DNA of 64,000 bases from Rubrobacter indicoceani (lineage in GTDB: Bacteria > Actinomycetota > Rubrobacteria > Rubrobacterales > Rubrobacteraceae), in assembly GCF_003568865.1 (NCBI RefSeq), contig NZ_CP031115.1, positions 2,046,001 to 2,110,000 on the forward strand. The letters are read 5' to 3'. The translations under genes were made by a program, and so were the position numbers. The notes beneath the pieces are model-generated. The model was not told the origin of the DNA, did no database searches, and was given only the letters and a program-made list of their open reading frames with translations. Below are positions 8,891 to 46,687 of the stretch, piece by piece. Every line of letters starts with the position of its first letter. Position 1 is the stretch's first letter.

Positions 8891-8928
8891 CGCCGAAAGA
8901 GACCGCTTACAGGCGGTCTCTTTCGGCG
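8891..8928 (-). terminator. 16-bp perfect hairpin between pstS and pstC
   Basis: CGCCGAAAGAGACCGC (8891-8906) and its exact complement (8913-8928) flank a 6-nt loop TTACAG. It begins 13 bp after the pstS stop. Only a short T tract (TTTGCG) follows on the minus strand, so it may act as a leaky terminator or as a 3' stabiliser that raises pstS mRNA over pstCAB, as known for other binding-protein genes. Confidence 0.75.
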
Positions 8929-14986: not shown

Positions 14987-15013
14987 GCCCACGAAGAGCG
15001 GCTCTTCGTGGGC
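14987..15013 (-). terminator. Perfect 13-bp inverted repeat in the guaB3 leader
   Basis: GCCCACGAAGAGC (14987-14999), one central G, and its exact complement (15001-15013). TTTGTC follows on the minus strand. It lies after the 26-residue protein gene but also downstream of the guaB3 promoter, so it can end the first transcript or attenuate the second. Confidence 0.6.
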
Positions 15014-41039: not shown

Positions 41040-42197
41040 TTATTGCGTCGGAGTTTCGTCCGGGTTTCGTTCGGGCTTTTTCGCCGGGGCGGTCGAGTTC
41101 CGGACTACAAGGCGGGTCGCAAAGGTCTTGGGGGGCTCTTCGCTGCTCCGGTTTTCTTCTCCCTCAAGCCGAGCGATAAGCTTTCTTCCGGCAAGAAGAC
41201 CTTTCTCCACGTGCGGCTGATGCACGGTGGTAAGCGGCGGGTTGGACCTCGCGGCCTCCGGCACGTCGTCGTAGCCGACTACGGAGATGTCCTCGGGTAT
41301 CCGAAGCCCGACCTCCCGGATAACCTCCATCACCCCGAAGGCGAGCTGGTCCGAGAGCGCGAGCACCGCCGTTGGATGCGGTCTGCGCCGGAGCAACGTC
41401 CGGGCGGCCTGCTTTCCCTGCTCCGGCGTGTTCTCCAGGCACTCGTAAACGGGCACGTCGCCCCAGTCGAGGCCGGAGGATGCGATCTCCTTTCTGTACC
41501 CGGTGAGCCTTGCAACGGTGTTGGCGTGGGTTGCATCCAGCTGTCGCTCCACCCCTGCAAGCCCCCCCGACGGCTCCCGGTTGAACTCAAAGGAGACGAC
41601 CCCGAAATCTCTGTGGCCGAGGTCCAGAAGATGTCTCGCCGCGCTTCTCGCCCCGCCTTCGTCGTCCACCCCGACCGAAGGCGCGCCCCCCGAAACGGGG
41701 TTGTCCACAAGAACCATCGGCAGCCCGCGCCCGACGATGAGCTGCAGCAACGGGTCGTCGCGGGCGATGCAGTACGCGATAAAGCCGTCCACCGCCGCCC
41801 CGGAGACCGCCCCGGCCTCCCGCCCGCCCGCCGGACCGCCCGGCAACAGTAGCATCCCCATCCCCGCCTCCTCCGCCGCAAACGACACGCCCTCAAGAAA
41901 CATGACCGCCGCCGGGTCGGTAAACGAATAGGACAGCCGGTCCGCACAGAGCACCCCTATCGCCCCGGCCCGCCTGCGCCGGAGGCTCCGCCCCAGAGGG
42001 TCCGGCCCGCCGTACCCGAGCTTCTCCGCCGCCTCGAAAATCCGCCCGCGCAACCCCTCGGAGAGCTGATCCGGCCTGTTGTAAGCGTTCGATACCGTCG
42101 CTACCGATACCCCCACCAGCGCCGCCACCTCCCGCGAAGTCGCCCGACGAAAAACGGGATTTGTCCCCGATCCCCCCTTGTCGCTCTTGACTCCCAT
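41040..42197 (-). CDS. LacI family transcriptional repressor
   Basis: A 385-residue regulator. The N-terminal helix-turn-helix is ATSREVAALVGVSVATVSNAYNRPDQLSEGLRGRI (about 19-53), followed by a hinge and a periplasmic-binding-protein-like sugar-sensing domain (GAIGVLCADRLSYSFTDPAA through ISVVGYDDVPEAARSNPPLTTV). The C-terminal 30 residues are disordered. Its own promoter is leaderless: TAGCAT ends 7 nt before the ATG, with TTTACT 17 bp further up. The inverted repeat at 42211-42234 fills this spacer and reaches the -35 box, which suggests autorepression. It diverges from the MFS-GH31 genes and probably responds to a glucoside. Confidence 0.93.
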   Translation of the reverse strand: MGVKSDKGGSGTNPVFRRATSREVAALVGVSVATVSNAYNRPDQLSEGLRGRIFEAAEKLGYGGPDPLGRSLRRRRAGAIGVLCADRLSYSFTDPAAVMFLEGVSFAAEEAGMGMLLLPGGPAGGREAGAVSGAAVDGFIAYCIARDDPLLQLIVGRGLPMVLVDNPVSGGAPSVGVDDEGGARSAARHLLDLGHRDFGVVSFEFNREPSGGLAGVERQLDATHANTVARLTGYRKEIASSGLDWGDVPVYECLENTPEQGKQAARTLLRRRPHPTAVLALSDQLAFGVMEVIREVGLRIPEDISVVGYDDVPEAARSNPPLTTVHQPHVEKGLLAGRKLIARLEGEENRSSEEPPKTFATRLVVRNSTAPAKKPERNPDETPTQ

Positions 42198-42234
42198 AAA
42201 ACAGATGCTACTTTACTTAAACGATTAAGTAAAG
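42187..42234. promoter_or_regulatory. Divergent promoters with shared LacI-type operator
   Basis: CTTTACTTAA (42211-42220) and TTAAGTAAAG (42225-42234) form a perfect 10-bp inverted repeat with a 4-bp centre. For the repressor gene (-), -35 TTTACT is 42228-42233 and -10 TAGCAT is 42205-42210, 17 bp apart. For the transporter gene (+), -35 TTGACT is 42187-42192 and -10 TACTTT is 42209-42214, 16 bp apart. The repeat covers parts of both promoters. Confidence 0.8.
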
Positions 42235-42279
42235 CTACGGGTTCGGTGGGGTGGGTTGCTTAGCAGGCTCGGATACGGC

Positions 42280-43473
42280 ATGGAGGATGGGTTGCGTCGG
42301 GGGGTATATCTGGCGCGGCTTTCGGTTATCGTGATCTTCTTTCTCAACGGTTTCGGGTTTGCCAACTGGGTGGTGAGGATCCCGGCGGTTCAGGAGAACG
42401 TCGGGATCGGGGCCGGCGCTCTGGGTTTCGCGTTGCTCGGTGTGGCGGTCGGATCGCTGGTTTCGATGCCGACCATCGGCGGGCTGGTTTCACGGTTCGG
42501 GAGCCGTCCGGTTACGCTTCTCACCCTGTTCGTGTTCTCGGCGCTTCTGCCGCTGCCCTCGTTCGCCACGACTTTGTCCGCGCTTTTCGGGGCGCTTTTT
42601 CTGCTCGGCCTGGCCTTTGGCGGCCTCGATGTTGCGATGAACGCTCACGCCGTTGCGGTGGAGAAGGGGTATGGAAGGGCCATCATGGCCTCCTTTCACG
42701 CCTTTTTCAGCCTCGGCGGGCTGGTCGGGGCGGTTGTCGGCGGGTTCGTTGCAAGCTTCGGCGTCGGGGTATCGGCGCACCTCGTCGGGATAGCGGTCCT
42801 GCTCCTTGCGGTCTCGGTTCTCGCCACCCGGCATCTGCTTCCGGCCTCGGAAGACGCCGATTCGGTGGAGGACGGGGGGGAGAAGAGTCCGGCTTTTGCG
42901 AGGCCGACGAAAGGGCTGCTCGGGCTCGGGGTCATAGCGTTCTGCGTCCTTGTCGGGGAGGGTGCGATGGCCGACTGGAGCGCGGTGTACCTGAGGGGGA
43001 CGCTCGGGACGGGCGAGGGCTTCGCCGCCGCCGGGTTCGCCGTCTTCTCGCTCACCATGACCCTCGGGCGGTTTTCGGGGGATTGGATCACAAACAAAAC
43101 AGGGGCAAGGACCATCGTCCGGGCGAGCGCCGCGGTAGCCGCCACGGGTCTTGCCGTAGGGCTTATCGGCGGCACCCCGGCCTTTGCGCTCGTCGGCTTC
43201 GGGTGCGCCGGGCTCGGCTTCGCGGTGATCTTCCCGGCCACCCTCAGCGCGGCCGGACACGCCGGCGACCTGGCCCCCGGACCCGCCGTAGCCGCCATCG
43301 CGACCGCCGGGTACTTCGGCTTCCTTGTCGGCCCGCCGTCCATCGGCTTCGCCGCCGAGCTGTTCGGCCTCGGAGGAGCCCTGTTTATAGTCGTGGCCCT
43401 CAGCGCGGTCGTTGTGGTCCTCGCTGGAAACGTCGAGAAAAACGGGAAAAAGCCGGCTAACCCGACAGAGTAG
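42280..43473 (+). CDS. MFS transporter, probably for a glucoside or sugar
   Basis: A 397-residue major facilitator with about 12 predicted helices. It carries the FucP/YbjJ-like features RIPAVQENVGIGAGALGFALLGVAVGSLVSMP and GGLDVAMNAHAVAVEKGYGRAIMASFHAFFSLGGLVGA, and the EGAMADWSAVYLRGTLG segment of this subfamily. I prefer the ATG at 42280; a TTG at 42256 is an alternative. It sits between the LacI operator and the GH31 glucosidase gene on the same strand, so it likely imports the oligosaccharide or exports a product. A short cytoplasmic charged loop (ASEDADSVEDGGEKS) lies in the middle. Confidence 0.88.
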   Translation: MEDGLRRGVYLARLSVIVIFFLNGFGFANWVVRIPAVQENVGIGAGALGFALLGVAVGSLVSMPTIGGLVSRFGSRPVTLLTLFVFSALLPLPSFATTLSALFGALFLLGLAFGGLDVAMNAHAVAVEKGYGRAIMASFHAFFSLGGLVGAVVGGFVASFGVGVSAHLVGIAVLLLAVSVLATRHLLPASEDADSVEDGGEKSPAFARPTKGLLGLGVIAFCVLVGEGAMADWSAVYLRGTLGTGEGFAAAGFAVFSLTMTLGRFSGDWITNKTGARTIVRASAAVAATGLAVGLIGGTPAFALVGFGCAGLGFAVIFPATLSAAGHAGDLAPGPAVAAIATAGYFGFLVGPPSIGFAAELFGLGGALFIVVALSAVVVVLAGNVEKNGKKPANPTE

Positions 43474-43509: not shown

Positions 43510-45930
43510 ATGGCAGAAGACTTCATGAAGCCCGCACCGAAGGGGACCTACGAGCCCATCGGAGCGGCGACCCTCCAGGACCACGACGGCAACTCCCTGC
43601 GCCTGAAGGCCGGGACGACGACCGTCGAGGTCGCGGTTCTCGCGGACGGCGTGTTCCGCATCGGGGCGTTCCCGAACGGACGCAACTTCCGCTACGACAC
43701 CCCCGCCACCGACGGTCACGAGCCCGTCGCGCCCGGGTCCGTCGCGATCGAAGAAACAGACGGCGGCTACACCCTGAAGTCCGGCGGCGCGAGCGTCGGC
43801 GTCGCCCTGAACCCCCTGCGGATAAGCTTCACGGATACGACCGGCCTGACGTTCTGCGCCGACGACGGGGAGCTCGGAATGGGCTTCTTCAGAACGCCCG
43901 GCGCAAACGTCTTCACCAAACCCTTGGGCGACGCGGTGAAGCTCAACAAGCAGCGCGAGGCAGGCGAGCGCACCTTCGGGTGCGGGCAGCGAAGCGGGCC
44001 GCTCGACAAATCCGGGACGCGCCAGACCTTCTACAACGCCGACCCGCCCGAAGGCCACACCGACTCAATGGACAACCTCTACTCGTCCACCCCGTTTACC
44101 CTGACGCTCAAGGACGGCCGGGCGCACGGCCTGCTCTTCGACAACCCGTCGCGGTCGGTCTTTGACCTCGGCAAAGAAACCCCGGGTATAAACTCCTACG
44201 AATCCCTCGGCGGGGACCTTATCTACTACGTCTTCGCCGGCCCGACCCCGAAGGACGTGCTGCGGCAGTACACAGAGGTGACCGGTCGCACCCCGCTGCC
44301 GCCGATGTGGGCTCTGGGAAACCAGCAGTGCCGCTGGAGCTACGAGACCGCCGACGAGGTGCGTGAGATAGCGCACCAGATGCGAGAGCGCGACATACCG
44401 TGCGACGTTGTCTACCTCGACATAGATTACATGGACGGCTTCCGGGTCTTTACCTGGGATGAAGAAGCCTTCCCGAAACACAGAGAACTGCTCGCCGAGC
44501 TGAAAGCCGACGGCTTCGACGTGGTTGCGATAGTGGACCCCGGCGTAAAGGTGGACGAGAACTATCCCGTCTACGTCGAGGGCCGGGAGAAAGGTTACTT
44601 TGTAAGGACCGCCGTCAACGAGGAGTATCAGAACGCGGTGTGGCCCGGCGTCTGCGCGTTCCCGGATTTCGCAAGCGAGGCGGTCAGGAAATGGTGGGGC
44701 GAGAACCACCGGCAGATGCTGGAGGACGGCATCTCAGGCATCTGGTGCGATATGAACGAGCCGTCGCTCTTCGTTCCGCACCAGTCCACGATGCCCGATG
44801 ACGCGGTGCACAACTCCGGCGCTCGGAGCATCCGGCACGGTGAGATCCACAACGCCTACGGTCAGCTTATGGTGAAGGGCGTGCGCGAGGGGCTCCTCGA
44901 TATCGCCCCGGACAGGCGTCCGTTTGTTATAAGCCGCTCGGGGTACGCCGGTCTTCAGCGGCACGCGATGCAGTGGATGGGCGACAACTCCTCGTGGTGG
45001 GAGCACCTCTACATGGCGATGCCGCAGCTTATGAACGTCGGGCTCTCGGGCGTGGCGCACGCCGGGGTCGATATCGGCGGCTTCTTCGACGATACAACCG
45101 GGGAGCTTCTCGCCCGCTTCACCGAGTTCGGGGTCTTTCAGCCGTTCTGCCGCAACCATTCGGTCAAAGGCTCCGAAAACCAGGAGCCGTGGGCCTTCGG
45201 GGAGCCCTACGAGTCGGTGTGCCGGGCCATGATCTCGCTCAGGATGCGTCTTCTTCCACACTTCTATACCCTTTTCGAGGAGTCGCACAGAACGGGCGCG
45301 CCGATAATGCGGCCGCTTCTTTTCGAGTACCCCGAGGACGCTAAGACCTACGCGGCCGACGACGAGTTCCTGCTCGGTGAGTCGGTGCTGGTCGCCCCGA
45401 TCACAAAGCCCGGCATCGAACACCGCCACGTCTACCTGCCGAAAGGGACCTGGTTTCACTACTGGACCTGCGAGAGGTTCGACGGCGAACAGCACATCCT
45501 CGCCCACGCACCCCTGGGCCAGCCCGCCGTCTACCTCAAGGCCAACACCGCCCTTCCGCTCGGCCCGGTCAGGATGAACACAAAGGAGCTGACCGACGCT
45601 CCTCTAACGTACCTGGTTTACTCGGCCGAGGGCGAAGGAACCGCCACGCTCTACGAGGACGCCGGAGACGGCTATGCGCAAGAAAGCGGCGAGTACGCGA
45701 GGCGCACGATACGGACCCGAGCCGCTGACGGCGCGACGACCATCACGATAGAAGAGCGTGAGGGAACTTTCGTACCGGAACGTTCGCTCGCCATAGTGGA
45801 CGTGCGCGGCATCGAGCGTCCGTCGGAGGTTACGGTAAACGGCGAGCGGCACGACTTCGACTACGAAGACGGGGCGCTCAAGGTGAGGTTTCCGGAGTCG
45901 GCATCGGAGGCTGTAATCAAGGCCCGCTGA
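43510..45930 (+). CDS. Glycoside hydrolase family 31 alpha-glucosidase
   Basis: An 806-residue cytoplasmic enzyme with no signal peptide. The GH31 nucleophile is Asp414 in GIWCDMNEP, and the acid/base Asp is at about 492 in MQWMGDNSSWW; HAGVDIGGFFDD and FCRNHS follow. An N-terminal beta-sandwich (DUF4968/GH31_N type, about 1-240) and C-terminal beta domains flank the (beta/alpha)8 barrel. The family hydrolyses alpha-glucosides (maltose, isomaltose, others) or alpha-xylosides; the specificity is open. The ATG at 43510 follows AGGAGAGG. It lies 37 bp after the transporter gene and is under the LacI-type operator. Confidence 0.96.
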   Translation: MAEDFMKPAPKGTYEPIGAATLQDHDGNSLRLKAGTTTVEVAVLADGVFRIGAFPNGRNFRYDTPATDGHEPVAPGSVAIEETDGGYTLKSGGASVGVALNPLRISFTDTTGLTFCADDGELGMGFFRTPGANVFTKPLGDAVKLNKQREAGERTFGCGQRSGPLDKSGTRQTFYNADPPEGHTDSMDNLYSSTPFTLTLKDGRAHGLLFDNPSRSVFDLGKETPGINSYESLGGDLIYYVFAGPTPKDVLRQYTEVTGRTPLPPMWALGNQQCRWSYETADEVREIAHQMRERDIPCDVVYLDIDYMDGFRVFTWDEEAFPKHRELLAELKADGFDVVAIVDPGVKVDENYPVYVEGREKGYFVRTAVNEEYQNAVWPGVCAFPDFASEAVRKWWGENHRQMLEDGISGIWCDMNEPSLFVPHQSTMPDDAVHNSGARSIRHGEIHNAYGQLMVKGVREGLLDIAPDRRPFVISRSGYAGLQRHAMQWMGDNSSWWEHLYMAMPQLMNVGLSGVAHAGVDIGGFFDDTTGELLARFTEFGVFQPFCRNHSVKGSENQEPWAFGEPYESVCRAMISLRMRLLPHFYTLFEESHRTGAPIMRPLLFEYPEDAKTYAADDEFLLGESVLVAPITKPGIEHRHVYLPKGTWFHYWTCERFDGEQHILAHAPLGQPAVYLKANTALPLGPVRMNTKELTDAPLTYLVYSAEGEGTATLYEDAGDGYAQESGEYARRTIRTRAADGATTITIEEREGTFVPERSLAIVDVRGIERPSEVTVNGERHDFDYEDGALKVRFPESASEAVIKAR

Positions 45931-46024: not shown

Positions 46025-46687
46025 TCAGGCGGGGATCATGTCTTCGAGGCGTGAGTCGGTGAAGTCCCGGACAACAAGGTAGGTTCCGGCCTCGAGCAGG
46101 TACTCCTCGCTCTGGGTCGAGGCGACGCCGACGGTGCGGATTCCGGCCCCGAGCGCGGAGGCGATGCCCGAGCGCGAGTCTTCAAAGGCGACGGCCTCGT
46201 CCGGTGAAAGGTCGAGGCGGCGCAGGGCCTCCGCGTACGGTGCGGGGTCGGGTTTTCCGGCATCCACGTCGTCGGCGACGACCACCTCCTCGAAATATCC
46301 TTCGAGACCGAGCGCGGCCATCACGACCCGGGCGTTCTCGCGGGGGGCGTTGGTGACGAGAGCGAGGCGAAGCCCCGCCTCCCGGGCCGCCCCGACAAAC
46401 TCCAGAAGCCCCGGCGTCGGTTCAAGACCGTCCACGCGATCGCGGAAGTGGACTTCCTTCTCCTCGACGAGCGCCGCCGTCTGCTCGGCGGAGAGACCGG
46501 GGATGTACTCGGCGGCGATGTCGGGGTTCAGCCGACCGCTGATGTTCGCCTGGTAGAAAGCCCGGTCAACGTCCATCGAGGCGTGCTGCCGCAGGATGTC
46601 GGCCCACGCCGGGAAGTGCAGCGAGTCCGTCTCGGCGAGCGTCCCGTCAAGGTCGAGGAGCAGGGCCCTAGGCTTTGTTTCGGTCAA
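46025..46687 (-). CDS. HAD superfamily phosphatase/phosphomutase (beta-phosphoglucomutase-like)
   Basis: A 220-residue HAD hydrolase. Motif I is LLDLDGTLAETDSLH (Asp nucleophile and the second Asp), motif II LALVTNAPREN, motif III DAGKPDPAPY and motif IV AVAFEDSRSGI. The alpha-helical cap has the HxxxW region seen in beta-phosphoglucomutases and related sugar phosphatases. The start is a TTG at 46687 with GGAG 8 nt upstream. It converges with the GH31 gene and may process a sugar phosphate from the same pathway, but this is inference. Confidence 0.9.
   Translation of the reverse strand: MTETKPRALLLDLDGTLAETDSLHFPAWADILRQHASMDVDRAFYQANISGRLNPDIAAEYIPGLSAEQTAALVEEKEVHFRDRVDGLEPTPGLLEFVGAAREAGLRLALVTNAPRENARVVMAALGLEGYFEEVVVADDVDAGKPDPAPYAEALRRLDLSPDEAVAFEDSRSGIASALGAGIRTVGVASTQSEEYLLEAGTYLVVRDFTDSRLEDMIPA

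What the first reader, a model, noticed from the sequence alone, without database searches (positions are those of the whole stretch)
42187..42234. One palindrome covers two divergent promoters of the alpha-glucoside module
A 10-bp perfect inverted repeat lies over the -35 box and spacer of the leaderless lacI promoter and over the -10 box of the transporter promoter. This predicts that the LacI protein represses itself and the MFS-GH31 genes from a single site, released by a glucoside.
Basis: partly seen in the sequence, partly recalled or inferred. Interest (0 to 1): 0.5.

Follow-up and report, generated by a model that had tools for sequence, protein, structure and literature searches.

The report
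Repressor site at a shared promoter
A sugar-type repressor gene and a neighbouring transporter–glucosidase pair are read in opposite directions from two interlocked promoters, and a DNA palindrome lying over both is very probably where the repressor binds to switch both off; this is a well-known kind of control, here supported by comparison with relatives.

Summary
The palindrome is real: CTTTACTTAA-ACGA-TTAAGTAAAG at 42211-42234, the only copy in the 3.08-Mb genome at up to 3 mismatches. Upstream regions of 23 related lacI genes show that the conserved unit is its 14-bp CG-centred core, CTKAANCGNTTMAG. The outer arms are not conserved even in the sister species. The core sits 4-6 nt before the lacI -10 box in 22 of 24 regions, and its sequence covaries with residue 33 of the regulator's recognition helix. 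So this LacI-family protein very probably binds here. The promoter reading is also supported: a -10 box lies 7-9 nt before a start codon in 23 of 24 regions (leaderless lacI), and the transporter's -35 TTGAC, inside lacI's first codons, is kept in 17 of 24. Repression of both promoters is the best reading; binding is untested. The glucoside inducer is weaker: GH31 is linked in only 7 of 24 loci, and 12 GH31 genes elsewhere lack the site. LacI autoregulation at CG-centred even palindromes is standard (PMC4052901), so this is a new member of a known kind. Side observation: 13 of 24 regions carry overlapping double sites 13-15 bp apart.

The parts
42211..42234 (.). 24-bp palindrome, arms of 10 bp, spacer ACGA
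42216..42229 (.). conserved 14-bp operator core CTTAAACGATTAAG with central CG (predicted LacI-protein site)
   Evidence: same kind of site upstream of relatives' lacI genes; covaries with recognition-helix residue 33
42228..42233 (-). predicted -35 of lacI (TTTACT)
   Evidence: sequence; 17 nt from the -10; weak consensus
42205..42210 (-). predicted -10 of lacI (TAGCAT), 7 nt before the ATG, so predicted leaderless mRNA
   Evidence: TA.C[AT][TC] 7-9 nt before a start codon in 23 of 24 regions
42187..42192 (+). predicted -35 of transporter promoter (TTGACT), inside lacI codons 2-4
   Evidence: GTCAA/TTGAC kept in 17 of 24, including a plasmid-borne paralogue whose start codon has moved
42206..42214 (+). 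predicted extended -10 of transporter promoter (TGC TACTTT), sharing base pairs with the lacI -10
   Evidence: TA...T at 16 bp (13) or 18 bp (4) in the 17 regions with TTGAC
41040..42197 (-). LacI/GalR-family regulator gene, 385 aa
42292..43473 (+). MFS transporter gene (TTG start with GGAGG 42282-42286; other in-frame starts 42256 TTG, 42280 ATG)
   Evidence: start choice is my inference
43510..45930 (+). GH31 alpha-glucosidase-type enzyme gene, 806 aa, predicted same operon
46025..46687 (-). HAD-family (beta-phosphoglucomutase-like) gene, neighbour kept in several relatives, not shown to be under this site

Best explanation
The palindrome contains a CG-centred operator for the adjacent LacI-family protein. 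Two sigma-70-type promoters interlock over 47 bp: their -10 boxes share base pairs, the transporter's -35 is inside the first codons of lacI, and the lacI mRNA starts at or next to its ATG. A repressor dimer on 42216-42229 would cover the lacI spacer and -35 and the transporter -10 and start point, shutting off lacI (self-limitation) and the MFS-GH31 operon together. A small molecule, probably a sugar, would release it. Shown by comparison: the site, its position, the promoter boxes and the protein-site covariation. Inferred: binding, repression of both promoters, and the inducer.
For: LacI family: PF00356 HTH and PF13377 sensor domain; homologous to PurR, CcpA and LacI chains. Site: in 17 of 24 upstream regions the best match to CTKAANCGNTTMAG beats 99% of 1000 shuffles, and the core lies 4-6 nt from the lacI -10 in 22 of 24. 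Genome scan of 37 genomes: at most 3 places in any; in 10 of the 14 genomes with hits, one hit is upstream of the lacI relative (coordinates). Residue 33 covaries with the half-site: A33 (13 proteins) CTTAA/CTGAA/CTAAA and one GTAAA, S33 (6) always CTG, M33 (4) always TTTA. Invariant hinge Leu72 with the central CG. Leaderless start in 23 of 24; opposing TTGAC in 17 of 24 with TA...T at 16 or 18 bp; TTGACT kept in L058 although the start codon moved to 35 nt after the -10.
Against: No binding or transcript data. Both promoters are poor by strict consensus. Seven of 24 regions (L048, L058, L059, L060, L061, L062, L065) do not reach p<0.01; their sites are of CTGTAACG or TTTAACG flavour, scored against a pattern made for the majority type. 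L044, L051 and L054 lack the GTCAA match although the transporter lies divergently. In L056 and L057 the core lies 20 nt from the -10. Rows are not independent (L056/L057 same genus; L046/L049 same genome).
Confidence: 0.85

Rival explanations
1. The site is bound by this LacI protein but the inducer and main target are not alpha-glucosides: the conserved target is the MFS transporter, and GH31 joined its operon later.
For: An MFS relative lies upstream on the opposite strand from lacI in 19 of 24 loci but GH31 is linked in 7. GH31 genes at other loci have no site (0 of 12 scanned; 6 of those 12 genomes have a lacI relative of 57% identity or more). In L058 a dioxygenase-family gene lies downstream.
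Against: Alpha-amylase-domain (GH13-type) genes sit beside lacI in L043, L045 and L056, so the neighbourhood often concerns alpha-glucans even without GH31. MFS and GH31 are only about 36 bp apart here.
Confidence: 0.4
2. Only one promoter is repressed; the other is little affected, or the two are coupled mainly by RNA polymerase competition at an interlocked promoter.
For: The two promoters cannot be occupied together, and the predicted start-to-start distance of about 23 bp is one of the common distances given for bidirectional promoters in PMC12825309.
Against: The operator physically overlaps core elements of both promoters. That paper also reports that basal transcription of its five promoters was too low for competition (abstract).
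Confidence: 0.25
3. Another regulator, such as the LacI paralogue on contig 2 of the same genome, binds here.
For: The genome carries a 53% identical paralogue on contig 2 (L058) with its own MFS.
Against: The paralogue has S33 and its own CTGTAACG/CTGCATCG double site, unlike CTTAAACG here. The site is conserved in relatives next to this regulator.
Confidence: 0.06
4. The symmetry is an accident of overlapping AT-rich promoter boxes and no protein reads it.
For: The outer arms (CTTTA/TAAAG) coincide with the lacI -35 and transporter -10 and are not kept in the sister species L041.
Against: The 14-bp core with central CG is kept, symmetric, at a fixed distance from the -10, and changes on both sides together with recognition-helix residue 33.
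Confidence: 0.05

Closest known systems
LacI-family local regulons with autoregulation (Ravcheev et al. 2014, PMC4052901; passages and section 9 read)
   Same: Even palindrome with central CG (1173 of 1303 regulators there), autoregulation in 72% of regulators, divergent target genes, local regulon beside the regulator
   Different: Conserved core only 14 bp; site overlaps both core promoters; the word Rubrobacter does not occur in that paper's main text
Overlapping LacI-family double sites about 13 bp apart (same paper, 110 operons; E. coli GntR/gntKU cited there)
   Same: 13 of 24 regions of this group carry two CG-centred sites 13 (8), 14 (1) or 15 bp (4) apart
   Different: The window and its sister species carry a single site; spacing varies within one orthologous group
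Bidirectional promoters (Warman et al. 2026, PMC12825309; abstract and introduction read)
   Same: Opposed promoters with shared -10 base pairs; predicted starts about 23 bp apart, a distance named there as common
   Different: Here the two directions are predicted to make mRNA for a repressor and its target, with the repressor's site on top; starts are not mapped

Membership tests
LacI/GalR-family regulator | N-terminal LacI-type HTH plus periplasmic-binding-protein-like sensor domain | tested here: met
   PF00356 38.7 bits (cut-off 27), PF13377 111.7 bits (cut-off 26.5)
LacI/GalR-family regulator | Hinge leucine of the type that opens the central CG step (role recalled, from no call) | tested here: met
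   L72 in RSL/RGL is listed as invariant in the 20-row group (L065 is a gap there); the family match to PurR and LacI chains is
LacI/GalR-family regulator | Binds the CG-centred palindrome | not testable with these tools
   only covariation and position
Autoregulated LacI local regulon | Operator in the promoter of its own gene and of an adjacent target | tested here: met
   site overlaps the predicted boxes of both; repression itself not tested
Bidirectional promoter | Divergent starts on either side of, or within, a shared -10 element | tested here: inconclusive
   -10 boxes share 2 bp (42209-42210), more counting TGN; transcription starts unmapped
GH31 alpha-glucosidase | GH31 catalytic domain with full cover | tested here: met
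   PF01055 1-328/328, E 1.4e-120; the best solved relatives are named alpha-glucosidases
MalA-type maltase (NF040948) | Score above the curated cut-off | tested here: not met
   491.8 bits against a cut-off of 800; substrate open
Sugar-uptake MFS transporter | Match to a specific sugar-transporter family | tested here: inconclusive
   PF07690 only; NCBIfam hits all far under cut-off; no solved relative

The most novel reading that the evidence does not exclude
This orthologous group is a natural series for the unexplained overlapping LacI operators: one regulator lineage with a nearly constant recognition helix uses a single site (window, sister species) or double sites 13, 14 or 15 bp apart, mostly at the same place in an interlocked bidirectional promoter whose one -35 is written inside the repressor's first codons. 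It could show how two dimers can, or cannot, share such sites.
Probability: 0.35. Interest if true: 0.5.

Novelty: new member of a known kind. Interest (0 to 1): 0.27.

Why it matters
It gives a sequence-supported operator and promoter map for a LacI regulator in a deep actinobacterial lineage where the searches here showed no regulon described (listing). It also offers an orthologous set that varies in operator number and spacing, which bears on the open question of overlapping sites stated in PMC4052901.

Tried and rejected
Strict sigma-70 scan: no promoter found in 41900-42500; kept as a result against strong promoters.

Further copies of the site in the genome: only two places with a perfect 14-bp core, plus 17 places at 2 mismatches (the reversed-pattern control gave 13 against 19 per strand, so mostly chance). 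The second perfect core, G000:C1:149273, lies about 62 nt before an aldo/keto reductase gene and is also in the sister genome G001. It sits in a stretch that is open and conserved as coding sequence (52 of 56 bases identical). Of eight reductase loci scanned (L112-L119), the two of this genus have it, L114 and L115 do not, and four gave no anchor. I leave it as possible, not shown.

GH31 genes not beside lacI: 15 loci fetched, 3 lacked the 5' end, 12 scanned, none with a site.

Name of the organism: a plasmid-collection search with the contig-2 paralogue gave no match. The family is inferred as Rubrobacter from the named relatives L034 and L035.

Literature: searches, seen as listings with abstract starts; nothing on this regulator in what was listed. 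Two papers were read in part.

Dropped rows: L063 (truncated) and L064, L066, L067 (33-41% identity) were left out of the 24-region counts. L065 (a lacI found in two pieces) was kept for DNA counts but is missing from the residue-33 table (23 proteins).

Full report
Observation. The palindrome CTTTACTTAA-ACGA-TTAAGTAAAG is at 42211-42234. It is unique in the window and in the 3,078,689-base genome at up to three mismatches and is not expected by chance. lacI starts at 42197 on the minus strand. The MFS transporter starts at 42292 (or 42280/42256) on the plus strand and GH31 follows at 43510. Families: LacI HTH plus sensor domain, MFS_1, GH31, and a HAD-type neighbour.

What is conserved. I fetched relatives of the lacI gene from genomes of the same family and read 24 upstream regions (window plus 23; four distant or truncated ones dropped). 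Scored against CTKAANCGNTTMAG (12 specified positions), 17 of 24 best sites beat 99% of 1000 dinucleotide shuffles. The pattern was drawn after looking at these same regions, so the shuffle test is somewhat favourable. Independent of that, scanning 37 genomes for the exact pattern gave at most 3 places each. Fourteen genomes had any, and in ten of these (G000, G001, G005, G011, G013, G014, G015, G016, G021, G022) one lies upstream of the lacI relative (coordinates); G018, G006, G012 and G036 have a hit elsewhere. The outer arms of the window palindrome coincide with promoter boxes and are lost in the sister species L041 while the core is intact.

Protein-DNA covariation. In the protein alignment the recognition-helix position 33 (aligned by me with LacI Gln18; the role of that position is recalled) is A in 13, S in 6 and M in 4 of 23 proteins. 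The half-sites follow: A33 has CTTAA (16 half-sites), CTGAA (6), CTAAA (3), GTAAA (1); S33 has only CTG-type (12 of 12); M33 only TTTA-type (8 of 8). Since the M33 proteins form one group, this is a handful of events rather than 23. The central CG is kept in all 24 cores used, and hinge leucine 72 is invariant where the alignment covers it. This ties the site to this protein.

Promoters. A box TA.C[AT][TC] stands 4-6 nt after the operator core in 22 of 24 regions (20 nt in L056 and L057). An in-frame start codon follows 7 nt (17), 8 nt (1) or 9 nt (5) later, the exception being L058. This makes leaderless lacI mRNA likely in most of the group. In some rows this start is not the first in-frame start codon after the box. 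On the other strand, TTGAC is found in lacI's first codons in 17 of 24, each with a TA...T box at 16 bp (13) or 18 bp (4), usually preceded by TG. When the lacI start shifts from 7 to 9 nt (L046, L047, L049, L055), the opposite spacer shifts from 16 to 18, so both share the same -10 base pairs. Of the 19 loci with the MFS relative on the opposite strand upstream of lacI, 16 have GTCAA; L044, L051 and L054 do not. The seventeenth is L045, whose contig carries no MFS. None of the four loci L059-L062, which lack this MFS, has it. In L058 the start codon has moved downstream, yet TTGACT and TGATAACTT remain, which argues for constraint on DNA rather than on the peptide. The strict promoter scan finds neither promoter.

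Mechanism. A dimer on 42216-42229 would block the lacI -35/spacer and the transporter -10/start at once. That predicts joint repression and self-limitation. Effector: GH31 is linked in 7 of 24 loci (window, L041, L042, L043, L046, L049, L055), and alpha-amylase-domain genes lie near lacI in L043, L045 and L056. GH31 genes elsewhere lack a site (0 of 12; only 6 of those 12 genomes, G002, G004, G011, G014, G015, G016, hold a lacI relative of 57% identity or more). An alpha-glucoside is a fair guess, not a finding.

Comparison with what is known. PMC4052901 (passages and section 9) reports autoregulation in 72% of LacI-family regulators and a central CG in 1173 of 1303, and describes overlapping sites about 13 bp apart upstream of 110 operons as hard to reconcile with structures. 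In the present group 13 of 24 regions carry a second CG-centred site (9 of 12 or better): 13 bp in L042, L043, L044, L045, L046, L047, L049, L055; 14 bp in L053; 15 bp in L048, L052, L058, L065. PMC12825309 (abstract and introduction) describes bidirectional promoters and names 23 bp among the common start distances; the predicted distance here is about 23 bp. The finding is therefore a good prediction of a known kind of control.

Noticed in passing
L042, L043, L044, L045, L046, L047, L048, L049, L052, L053, L055, L058, L065 (upstream of lacI): Double CG-centred operator-like sites 13, 14 or 15 bp apart in 13 of 24 regions, single in the window and sister species.
   Followed up: partly
G000:C1:149273-149286 (L079): A second perfect 14-bp core, CTTAAACGTTTAAG, about 62 nt before an aldo/keto reductase gene; also in the sister genome, but inside a conserved open stretch.
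   Followed up: partly
L058 (contig 2 of the same genome, 169,605 bases): A 53% identical lacI with its own divergent MFS on a second contig, with a perfect palindrome CTGCATCGTTACAG-T-CTGTAACGATGCAG and a start codon moved downstream behind a GGAGG.
   Followed up: partly
L065 (G023:C1, about 2077000): A lacI relative found in two pieces, possibly a broken gene, with the operator still in place.
   Followed up: no
window 8891-8928 and 14987-15013: Perfect inverted repeats with arms of 16 and 13 bp, terminator-like or of other use.
   Followed up: no
L042, L043, L044, L046, L047, L051 (first gene upstream of lacI on the opposite strand): A predicted 155-207 aa protein before the MFS gene in several relatives; the two examined (L043, L046) have no Pfam match.
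   Followed up: no
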